The notes beneath the pieces were generated by a model. It was given only the letters and a program-made list of their open reading frames with translations, had not been told where the DNA came from and did no database searches. From Anaerolineae bacterium (lineage in GTDB: Bacteria > Chloroflexota > Anaerolineae > Anaerolineales > Anaerolineaceae), in contig JABLWW010000005.1 of NCBI GenBank assembly GCA_013178295.1, positions 124,001 to 188,000 on the forward strand: DNA of 64,000 bases. The letters run 5' to 3'. Shown here piece after piece: positions 45,604 to 47,472 of this stretch (within the stretch, counting starts at the first letter, position 1; each line of letters begins with the position of its first letter). The translations under genes and the position numbers were made by a program.

Positions 45604-47472
45604 ATGGACTGGAAACGCTACAATCCACCGGAGGACGTAAAAAAGCTGTTGGAGGAGAATCCAAAGGTTACTATTGTAAGTTCCTCAAATGAATTAATGG
45701 AGATGGCATGTGGCGGGAAGCGTCATGACACTTTTGATGTTTTCTATGAGGTGCCTGGTTTTGGCAAGGTCGTAGAGGCAACTGTCGCACGCGTGCGCAA
45801 TGGCATTTCCGTCAACTACACGACATCCTACATGCGGCGCAGGGATCCGGACGCTTTAATTGTTGGGGATAATTTGCCTACAGACAAACCTACTTTCAGG
45901 GAAGTTTATGGTTATGATTTTTCAGTTATGCGGGCAAAAACGTTCGACTGGCTCAAAAAGCATCCCTTGATTATGTACGGTTTTACAGCAGGACGCAGGG
46001 ATATTGGTCTGGATGCGTTGGTGATTGTGCCAGCCAATGCTGGTTTTTTTGCGTTTGGTCTGGCTTTGCTGCAGGGGATTATTGCCTACAAGGATATTCC
46101 GGAAGATTTTCATCCTAAGGCAGTGGTATATGTTGCCCCGACGTTTCGCTATACTGATTTTGGTGGTAAACAGGTTGTTGTTCATCACCGCATGTCAGAG
46201 TTATACGAAATCTTCTCGTATAACTTATATCCGGGACCAAGCGCCAAGAAGGGCATATACGGTGTATTGATTGATTTGGGGGAGCGCGAAGGTTGGGTTG
46301 CACCGCATTGCTCTGCGGTTAAGGTAGTAACCCCTTATGATAATGAAGTAACCATTATGCATGAAGGCGCCAGTGGGGGCGGCAAAAGCGAAATGCTTGA
46401 GCAGGTGCGCCGCGAAAGTGATGGGCGTTTGTTGATTGGTGAAAATATCCTTACCGGCGAACGACGTTACCAGGCGATGCCACGCTCTTGTGATCTTTAC
46501 CCGGTATGCGATGATATGGCTTTGTGTCATCCTTCTTTGAAATCGAATCCGGATAAACTTTCACTGATGGATGCGGAAGATGCGTGGTTTGTGCGCACCA
46601 ATCATATTGCGCAGTATGGCGATGATATGGCTTTGGAGCGGCTGACCGCCAAACCGGAAGAGCCTTTACTCTTCCTCAATATAGACGCCGCGCCTGGCAG
46701 CCGAGCAATGATCTGGGAACACATTGAGGACGAGCCTGGAAAGCCTTGTCCGAATCCGCGCGTAACGATACCGCGCCGTATCATCCCCGGTGTTGTGGAT
46801 GGCCCTGTCTCGGTGGACATTCGCAGCTTTGGTGTGCGCACGCCGCCCTGTACGCGGGAAAAACCCTCGTATGGCATCATTGGCTTTTTTCACCTTCTTC
46901 CTCCTGCTCTGGCGTGGCTTTGGAGGTTGGTGGCGCCCCGCGGATATGATAATCCCAGCGTTATTGATAATAATGCAATAGCCAGCGAGGGGGTGGGGTC
47001 ATACTGGCCGTTTGCTACCGGGCTGCGCGTGCGGCAGGCGAATTTGCTACTGGCGCAATTTGTTGAGAATCCCCGCACCAGATATGTGCTGATACCTAAT
47101 CAATATGTGGGTGCATGGAAGGTGGGATTTATGCCGCAGTGGATTGCGCGTGAATATTTAGCCCGTCATGGCAGCGCCCGCTTTAGACCTGACCAACTAC
47201 GCGCTTCACGCTGTTCGTTGCTAGGCTCCACCCTGCATCAGCTGCATCTCGAAGGCAGCTTGCTCTCGCGCTGGTTTTTGCAGGTTGAGACACAACCGGA
47301 GGTCGGTGAAGAAGCCTATGACACGGGTGCTGCAATGTTGTATCAATTGTTTGAAAATACGCTGAGGGATTTTCTGAAGGCGGATTTGGATGCATTGGGA
47401 AAAGAGATTATCACCTGTTGTTTGGACAAAGGTACGGTTGTAGATTATGAGCGTCTTCTTCCCGGCGGATAG
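45604..47472 (+). CDS. DUF4914-like protein with PEPCK-style P-loop
   Basis: 622 residues. I assign it, from memory, to the uncharacterised DUF4914 family. A P-loop [12 protein letters not shown] (residues 253-264) resembles the GxSGxGKT loop of ATP-dependent PEP carboxykinase, and [10 protein letters not shown] (about 302) could be the metal-binding Asp pair of its kinase-2 motif. Other blocks: [56 protein letters not shown]. It lies between iclR (41 nt) and citrate synthase in the same direction. A carboxykinase or kinase of central metabolism is an attractive inference, not shown. No signal peptide. Confidence 0.65.
   Translation: [622 protein letters not shown]

What the first reader, a model, noticed from the sequence alone, without database searches (positions are those of the whole stretch)
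45604..47472. DUF4914 protein as a candidate central-metabolism carboxykinase
The P-loop GASGGGKS and the CDD pair recall PEP carboxykinase, and the gene sits inside a TCA/pentose-phosphate cluster under an IclR regulator. An unrecognised PEP/oxaloacetate or related enzyme here would fill a logical place.
Basis: inference. Interest (0 to 1): 0.6.

Follow-up and report, generated by a model that had tools for sequence, protein, structure and literature searches.

The report
DUF4914: an overlooked PEP carboxykinase-like enzyme
A widespread bacterial protein listed only as "unknown function" turns out to have the complete fold and nearly all the recognisable active-site residues of PEP carboxykinase, a key enzyme between sugar metabolism and the citric acid cycle, although its activity and phosphate donor still need a bench test.

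Summary
The 622-aa ORF at 45604-47472 (+) is real and is DUF4914 (PF16260). Its AlphaFold2 model (pLDDT 93.7) matches all three known PEP carboxykinase classes over the whole chain: ATP type Z 31.1 (487 residues), PPi type Z 30.0 (579), GTP type Z 26.7 (526). Local profile-profile comparison agrees, above reversed and shuffled controls. PEPCK's catalytic Arg, Tyr, Lys-Lys, His, P-loop and second Arg have counterparts, invariant in 81 of 81 homologues (one Arg 80 of 81); the Asp-Asp pair aligns with the GTP type only. The ATP-pocket motif RX5TR is not conserved, so the phosphate donor is open. The gene lies in IclR - DUF4914 - citrate synthase - Gnd, divergent from IDH-aconitase; 7 of 80 relatives share IclR plus citrate synthase, 6 of these also IDH and aconitase. 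Elsewhere it adjoins GTP-PEPCK genes (2 of 80 loci). The genome does have a normal ATP-pckA, but no PF00311 PEPC and no pyruvate carboxylase. Best reading: a fourth, uncharacterised PEPCK family, probably making oxaloacetate for citrate/2-oxoglutarate. Activity is untested.

The parts
45604..47472 (+). DUF4914 gene, 622 aa, PEP carboxykinase-superfamily protein
   Evidence: ORF; PF16260 E 6.2e-301; AF2 model pLDDT 93.7, whole-chain match to PEPCKs
45835..45843 (+). codons R78-R79-R80; R79 aligns with E. coli PEPCK R65 (CO2/oxaloacetate Arg, recalled role)
   Evidence: hhalign pair; R78 81/81, R79 80/81, R80 81/81
46228..46251 (+). YPGPSAKK, residues 209-216: Y209, K215, K216 align with E. coli Y207, K212, K213
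   Evidence: 81/81 invariant
46306..46308 (+). H235, aligns with E. coli H232 (metal ligand, recalled role)
   Evidence: 81/81 invariant; also aligned with the invariant His of the GTP-PEPCK set
46366..46389 (+). P-loop GASGGGKS, residues 255-262 (kinase-1a)
   Evidence: aligned with E. coli GLSGTGKT 248-255
46510..46515 (+). D303-D304 (kinase-2), aligned with the GDD pair of GTP-PEPCK
   Evidence: GTP-type profile alignment; the ATP-type alignment instead places poorly conserved E280 and N281 (N in 77 of 81) there
46753..46761 (+). N384-P385-R386; R386 aligns with E. coli R333 and with the conserved Arg of the GTP set
   Evidence: 81/81 invariant
46837..46839 (+). R412 of the FGVR motif, aligned with FGGR of GTP-PEPCK
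   Evidence: 81/81 invariant
46954..46983 (+). residues 451-460, the model's only internal ten-residue block with mean pLDDT under 80 (63); position fits the mobile lid loop of PEPCK (inference)
   Evidence: aligned near the GTERGITEP stretch of E. coli PEPCK
44765..45562 (+). IclR-type regulator, 41 bp upstream
47535..48842 (+). citrate (Si)-synthase, 62 bp downstream
   Evidence: NF007128 601.7 bits
48884..50299 (+). 6-phosphogluconate dehydrogenase (Gnd)
   Evidence: TIGR00873 661 bits
43361..44659 (-). NADP-isocitrate dehydrogenase, divergent from IclR
   Evidence: TIGR00183 609.5 bits
40633..43416 (-). aconitate hydratase AcnA
   Evidence: TIGR01341 1309.8 bits

Best explanation
DUF4914 is a distinct, uncharacterised family of the PEP carboxykinase superfamily. 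Shown by computation: the whole-chain PEPCK fold, sequence homology at profile level, and conservation of nearly the full catalytic set. Inferred: it catalyses the reversible reaction PEP + CO2 + (phosphate acceptor) <-> oxaloacetate + (phosphate donor). K215/K216, H235 and D304 would hold the metal, R79 and R386 the carboxylate/phosphate groups of oxaloacetate/PEP, and the P-loop K261-S262 the donor phosphates. In this organism it probably runs mainly in the carboxylating direction, giving oxaloacetate to the citrate synthase encoded just downstream and so carbon to citrate, isocitrate, 2-oxoglutarate and glutamate, while the separate ATP-PEPCK serves the opposite direction. The donor (ATP/GTP-type nucleotide or pyrophosphate) is not settled.
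For: Fold: in Foldseek 117 matches have E <= 0.001 and all 50 listed rows are PEPCK chains (one, 9a4u_A, from a PCKA-QOX2 complex model). VIA-align: 2pc9 ATP type Z 31.1, rmsd 2.8, 487 aligned; 6k31 PPi type Z 30.0, 3.3, 579 aligned; 2fah GTP type Z 26.7, 3.5, 526 aligned. Sequence: the best PDB hit of the 81-row profile is Thermus ATP-PEPCK (E 0.029); PF01293 is the most frequent second Pfam family, 14 of 81 members at E <= 1, best E 0.0054. Local hhalign against 21 ATP-PEPCK rows: score 59.3, probability 89%, 434 columns; against 16 GTP-PEPCK rows (15 distinct): 42.6, 38%, 192 columns. Nine controls each (1 reversed, 8 column-shuffled) reached at most 24.5 and 21.4. Residues. Context: IclR plus citrate synthase in 7 of 80 other loci, 6 of them also with IDH and aconitase; proB in L002 and proA in L014 beside them; GTP-PEPCK directly upstream in L077 and on both sides in L072; an Sbt_1 bicarbonate transporter at +1 in L049 and +3 in L038. 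The own genome has no PF00311 PEPC and no PF02436 pyruvate carboxylase/OAD match. In a 396-genome class sample PEPC is in 5 of 25 DUF4914 genomes against 179 of 371 others, Fisher p 0.0066.
Against: No activity data. A normal ATP-PEPCK is in the genome, and 35 of 40 DUF4914 genomes searched have PF01293 or PF00821, so it is usually not the only PEPCK. The ATP-pocket motif RX5TR is not conserved and no GTP F/YXXXF/Y pocket could be aligned. In global mode hhalign failed against the GTP set (score 11.1, 86 columns, out of register) and was weaker against the ATP set (32.3, 71%). The ATP-type alignment puts E280/N281 at the kinase-2 Asp pair; only the GTP-type alignment gives D303/D304. The shorter core profile (A2) found no PEPCK in the PDB, only a non-PEPCK at E 0.18. 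One unrelated Pfam family scored as well as PF01293 in one member (E 0.0047). The TCA cluster was seen only in Chloroflexota-type records; none of the 25 class-sample loci (24 genomes, flanks of about 1.5 kb or less) and not L083 showed it. The PEPC contrast is not corrected for phylogeny: in the own family 0 of 11 listed genomes have PEPC, and 9 of these 11 also lack DUF4914.
Confidence: 0.72

Rival explanations
1. It is a PEPCK that uses pyrophosphate/phosphate rather than a nucleotide, a compact relative of the 1100-residue PPi-PEPCKs.
For: PPi-PEPCK structures cover the most of the chain (574-579 of 622 residues, Z 29.8-30.0) and give the highest query TM-score (0.72-0.74 against 0.61-0.66 for the listed ATP-type and 0.59-0.65 for the listed GTP-type chains). 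The ATP-pocket motif is not conserved. 33 of 40 DUF4914 genomes have pyruvate phosphate dikinase over the cut-off (no background control). According to PMC8100219 (section 10 read) most organisms with PPi-PEPCK also have an ATP/GTP type, as here.
Against: [quoted passage not shown] By Z the PPi type (30.0) is slightly below the best ATP type (31.1) and level with other ATP-type rows. Membrane pyrophosphatase, in 38 of 40 DUF4914 genomes, is worthless as evidence inside this class: 377 of 396 genomes have one. No PPi-PEPCK sequence could be obtained for a profile test.
Confidence: 0.35
2. It uses a PEPCK-type mechanism on another 3- or 4-carbon keto acid, or is an oxaloacetate decarboxylase/kinase side-branch enzyme of the TCA or amino-acid pathways.
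For: The family has many invariant residues of its own (for example W231, H253, E254, R407, W438, W440) and varied neighbours: purC, purK, chorismate synthase, prephenate dehydratase, proA, proB.
Against: The oxaloacetate/PEP-binding Tyr, Arg and Lys positions of PEPCK are kept, and the neighbours that recur most are IDH, IclR, citrate synthase and aconitase.
Confidence: 0.15
3. It is a non-catalytic or regulatory PEPCK paralogue.
For: It lies next to true GTP-PEPCK genes in L072 and L077; 35 of 40 genomes have a canonical PEPCK.
Against: Catalytic positions are invariant or nearly so in 81 homologues from many phyla, unlike a pseudo-enzyme; five of 40 (draft) genomes show no PF01293 or PF00821 match, and neither family rang in the control genome Thermotoga maritima, which has DUF4914 (it does ring for PYC_OADA).
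Confidence: 0.08

Closest known systems
ATP-dependent PEP carboxykinase (PckA, PF01293, EC 4.1.1.49)
   Same: Whole-chain fold (best Z 31.1); R65, Y207, K212/K213, H232, S250, K254/T255 and R333 all have counterparts.
   Different: 12-17% identity; the adenine-pocket motif RX5TR is not conserved; extra segments (622 against about 530 aa); kinase-2 Asp pair not aligned; scores below the PF01293 cut-off (10.8 against 26.5 bits).
GTP-dependent PEP carboxykinase (PF00821/PF17297, EC 4.1.1.32)
   Same: Similar length; K-K, EGW-x-x-x-H, P-loop, D-D, N-x-R and FG-x-R motifs align; adjacent genes in L072 and L077.
   Different: The P-loop lacks the FPSACGKT signature; about 12-14% identity; no PF00821 match up to E 10; about 22 extra residues between the P-loop and the D-D pair.
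PPi-dependent PEP carboxykinase (PEP carboxytransphosphorylase, EC 4.1.1.38; 6k31, 8e1u)
   Same: Largest structural coverage, 574-579 of 622 residues, Z about 30, 16% identity.
   Different: About half the length (622 against about 1100 aa); no sequence hit to it in the PDB; DUF4914 keeps a canonical P-loop.

Membership tests
PEP carboxykinase superfamily | PEPCK fold over both lobes | tested here: met
   Residues 3-610 aligned to ATP-PEPCK, Z 31.1; 1-621 to PPi-PEPCK, Z 30.0
PEP carboxykinase superfamily | Sequence homology | tested here: met
   Local hhalign scores 59.3 and 42.6 against control maxima of 24.5 and 21.4; global mode failed for the GTP set
PEP carboxykinase superfamily | Metal/substrate residues (Arg, Tyr, Lys-Lys, His, P-loop Ser/Lys/Thr-Ser, second Arg) | tested here: met
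PEP carboxykinase superfamily | Kinase-2 Asp pair at the homologous place | tested here: inconclusive
   D303/D304 by the GTP-type alignment; E280/N281 by the ATP-type alignment
PEP carboxykinase superfamily | Oxaloacetate/PEP carboxykinase activity | not testable with these tools
   needs an enzyme assay
ATP-PEPCK (PF01293) | Pfam match above the curated cut-off | tested here: not met
   10.8 bits against 26.5
ATP-PEPCK (PF01293) | ATP pocket motif RX5TR (named in PMC2684135) | tested here: not met
   The pattern occurs in 6 of 81 homologues, four of them at about position 522 and the others at 21 and 484; it was found in 18 of 21 ATP-PEPCK rows
GTP-PEPCK (PF00821) | Pfam match above the curated cut-off | tested here: not met
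   No PF00821 match up to E 10
GTP-PEPCK (PF00821) | Guanine pocket F/YXXXF/Y (PMC2684135) | tested here: inconclusive
   WKVGF and FMPQW are conserved at 505-513, but the C-terminal profile alignment is not significant (E 0.45)
PPi-PEPCK | Whole-core structural match | tested here: met
   579 aligned, Z 30.0
PPi-PEPCK | Length of about 1100 aa with the class's inserted parts | tested here: not met
   622 aa; listed PPi-PEPCK chains 1108-1126
PPi-PEPCK | PPi/Pi dependence | not testable with these tools
   needs an assay
HPr kinase/phosphorylase (PEPCK-like P-loop, recalled) | P-loop domain without the PEPCK N-lobe | not tested
   Not compared directly; the full two-lobe match to PEPCK makes it unlikely

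The most novel reading that the evidence does not exclude
DUF4914 is a fourth, independently branching class of PEP carboxykinase with a new donor use (pyrophosphate/phosphate or an unusual nucleotide). It would be spread through many bacterial phyla and dedicated to CO2-fixing oxaloacetate synthesis for glutamate/aspartate-derived pathways, alongside an ordinary gluconeogenic PEPCK.
Probability: 0.35. Interest if true: 0.75.

Novelty: new variant of a known kind. Interest (0 to 1): 0.6.

Why it matters
The PEP-pyruvate-oxaloacetate node is central to carbon models of a cell. A widespread family filed as "unknown function" that belongs to this node would change metabolic reconstructions of Anaerolineae, Omnitrophota, Planctomycetes and Thermotoga, and could supply an anaplerotic carboxylase where PF00311 PEPC and pyruvate carboxylase are not found (22 of 40 DUF4914 genomes searched; archaeal-type PEPC and malic enzyme were not searched, and most of the genomes are drafts). 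It also gives a further branch for working out how PEPCKs acquired ATP, GTP or PPi specificity.

Tried and rejected
Single-sequence AlphaFold of P0001 gave a useless model (pLDDT 33.4); the 81-row alignment model was used instead.

Membrane pyrophosphatase as a sign of PPi use: 38 of 40 DUF4914 genomes have it, but so do 377 of 396 genomes of the class, so I do not count it. PPDK (33 of 40 over the cut-off) had no such background control and is weak.

"pckA is missing, so DUF4914 replaces it" is rejected for this genome, and 35 of 40 genomes have PF01293 or PF00821. Two of the PF01293 matches (G233, G235) are weak cross-hits to the same ORFs as their PF00821 matches, the G235 one below the cut-off; G231 is a divergent ORF; G226 and G228 are partial.

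Search with the core-only profile A2 against PDB found no PEPCK. The C-terminal part alone did not align significantly with the ATP- or GTP-PEPCK set. Global hhalign against the GTP set failed.

A direct profile comparison with PPi-PEPCK could not be made: no such sequence was reached, and the two key papers (Chiba 2015, 2019) are not held. Profile A1 over 30 genomes at E <= 10 listed DUF4914 genes only, not even the pckA genes.

Paper searches: "DUF4914" 0 papers, "PF16260" 0 papers; others. So no paper naming the family was found in this open-access library; nothing is claimed beyond it. Papers: PMC8100219 passages plus section 10; PMC10441589 passages; PMC2684135 outline and part 1 of 3 of the text. 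The rest were seen as listings only. The two reviews disagree on whether PPi-PEPCKs are related to the other types. Roles of the E. coli active-site residues are recalled textbook knowledge; only their alignment comes from calls.

Full report
Observation. The ORF at 45604-47472 (+) is 622 codons and is DUF4914 (PF16260, E 6.2e-301). PF01293 (ATP-PEPCK) is the only other Pfam hint, far below its cut-off (E 0.19). NCBIfam gave no match and a single-sequence PDB search found nothing. 97 relatives were found in genome contigs and 80 kept, by record title from Anaerolineae, Verrucomicrobia, Planctomycetes, Hydrogenedentota, Sumerlaeota, Omnitrophota, Bacteroidetes, Spirochaetes, Myxococcota and others. 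Of 14 control genomes only Thermotoga maritima has the family. It is in 25 of 396 genomes of the window's class and 2 of 201 of the phylum sample, so it is patchy.

Fold. With the 81-row alignment A1 the AlphaFold2 model has mean pLDDT 93.7 and pTM 0.92; a single-sequence run failed (pLDDT 33.4), so the model rests on the alignment. All 50 listed Foldseek rows are PEPCK chains of the ATP, GTP and PPi classes, one of them from a PCKA-QOX2 complex model. VIA-align: ATP type (2pc9) Z 31.1, rmsd 2.8, 487 aligned; PPi type (6k31) Z 30.0, rmsd 3.3, 579 aligned; GTP type (2fah) Z 26.7, rmsd 3.5, 526 aligned. ATP and PPi types are nearly tied (best Z differ by 1.1); coverage is largest for the PPi type.

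Sequence homology. The best PDB hit of the A1 profile is Thermus ATP-PEPCK (E 0.029), and 14 of 81 members reach PF01293 at E <= 1, best 0.0054 (a single member reached one unrelated family at 0.0047). Local profile-profile comparison with 21 ATP-PEPCK rows (E. coli pck, the own-genome pckA L001, and 19 from other DUF4914 genomes) scores 59.3, probability 89%, over 434 columns; with 16 GTP-PEPCK rows (15 distinct) 42.6, 38%, over 192 columns. In global mode the ATP comparison scored 32.3 (71%) and the GTP comparison failed (11.1, out of register). One reversed and eight column-shuffled versions of the DUF4914 alignment scored at most 24.5 (ATP) and 21.4 (GTP) in local mode. For scale, GTP against ATP type, accepted relatives, scored 83.1 locally. 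The core-only profile (A2) did not find PEPCK in the PDB, so the signal is spread over the chain.

Active site. The ATP-type alignment pairs E. coli R65, Y207, K212, K213, H232, S250, K254, T255 and R333 with R79, Y209, K215, K216, H235, S257, K261, S262 and R386. All are invariant in 81 of 81 homologues except R79 (80 of 81, flanked by invariant R78 and R80). The GTP-type alignment independently gives K215, K216, H235, K261 and R386 and adds D303/D304 and R412, opposite columns invariant in the 16 GTP rows. The ATP-type alignment instead puts E280/N281 opposite the kinase-2 Asp pair, so this one point rests on the GTP-type alignment and on conservation. The only internal ten-residue block with mean pLDDT under 80 (residues 451-460) lies where PEPCK has its mobile lid (inference). 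The RX5TR ATP motif given in PMC2684135 is in 18 of 21 ATP-PEPCK rows but only 6 of 81 DUF4914 rows, four of these at about position 522. A strongly conserved stretch around 503-523 (consensus [21 protein letters not shown]) sits near the expected base pocket, but its alignment is not significant. The donor is open.

Context. In the window the order is AcnA and IDH on minus, then IclR - DUF4914 - citrate synthase - Gnd on plus with 41, 62 and 41 bp gaps. A tblastn of the window's genes against 106 DUF4914 loci (80, L083, and 25 class-sample loci from 24 genomes with flanks of about 1.5 kb or less) found citrate synthase in 7, IclR in 7, IDH in 7, aconitase in 6 and Gnd in none of 106. The seven with IclR and citrate synthase are L002, L004, L014, L016, L017, L019 and L075; the six other than L002 also have IDH and aconitase; the seventh IDH hit (L006, 35% identity) stands alone. 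L002 carries proB after citrate synthase, and L014 has proA, preceded by a proB-like gene (by eye), between citrate synthase and DUF4914. In L077 a GTP-PEPCK is 187 bp upstream; in L072 DUF4914 lies between two GTP-PEPCK-family genes (68 and 109 bp gaps, same strand); in L008 a GTP-PEPCK lies about 5 kb away on the other strand. Sbt_1 bicarbonate transporters lie at +1 in L049 and +3 in L038. Other neighbours vary: purC, purK, chorismate synthase, prephenate dehydratase.

Genome content. The own genome has one ATP-PEPCK, no GTP-PEPCK, no PF00311 PEPC, no PF02436 pyruvate carboxylase/OAD, and a PPDK. Across 40 DUF4914 genomes (the own one and 39 chosen by me): PF01293 25 at E <= 0.001 (24 over the cut-off), PF00821 12, either 35; PEPC 8, PYC_OADA 13, neither of the latter two 22; two (G223, G227) have none of the four. 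Completeness of the 39 is not stated and many are metagenome drafts by title. In the class sample PEPC is in 5 of 25 DUF4914 genomes and 179 of 371 others (Fisher p 0.0066), not corrected for kinship: in the own family 0 of 11 listed genomes have PEPC while only 2 of 11 have DUF4914. Membrane PPase is in 38 of 40 but also in 377 of 396 class genomes, so it says nothing about PPi use here.

Mechanism. Shown by computation: superfamily membership and the conserved catalytic set. Inferred: reversible PEP/oxaloacetate carboxykinase chemistry. Inferred more weakly: the carboxylating direction, from the citrate-synthase/IDH/proline-gene linkage, the bicarbonate transporters in two loci, and the lack of PEPC and pyruvate carboxylase matches. 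A review notes that PPi-PEPCK organisms mostly also own an ATP/GTP type and that PEPCKs can run toward oxaloacetate (PMC8100219), so co-occurrence with pckA is no objection to the idea.

Membership. It belongs to the PEPCK superfamily by fold, sequence and active site. It is not filed under the ATP or GTP families: it fails their Pfam cut-offs, and the ATP motif test. It is not filed under PPi-PEPCK: half the length, donor untested. It is best described as a new variant of a known kind.

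Noticed in passing
L072 1250-6994: Three PEPCK-fold genes in a row on one strand: GTP-PEPCK, DUF4914, and a diverged GTP-PEPCK paralogue (530.5 bits against a 504 cut-off).
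   Followed up: partly
L124, L125, L126 (G233, G235, G234) and L072 5078-6991: Diverged GTP-PEPCK-type proteins; the first three are only 26-30% identical to the L077 GTP-PEPCK but keep the catalytic columns examined.
   Followed up: partly
L145 (G231:C27:12491-13606): A 556-codon open frame with a weak PF01293 match (E 6e-18) and no BLASTP match to E. coli pck at E 1e-5: possibly yet another PEPCK-like branch.
   Followed up: no
L146 (G205:C14:144134-145524): The ATP-PEPCK gene of this genome appears as two pieces in separate open frames; assembly error or broken gene not distinguished.
   Followed up: no
L041 and L048 (both from Myxococcota isolate IP29b_bin.29); G228: Two DUF4914 copies in one genome.
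   Followed up: no
L049 and L080, upstream and downstream: DUF4914 in Sumerlaeota records lies beside a LysR-like regulator (by eye), an MFS transporter resembling oxalate/formate/lactate carriers (below those models' cut-offs) and, in L049, an Sbt_1 bicarbonate transporter.
   Followed up: partly
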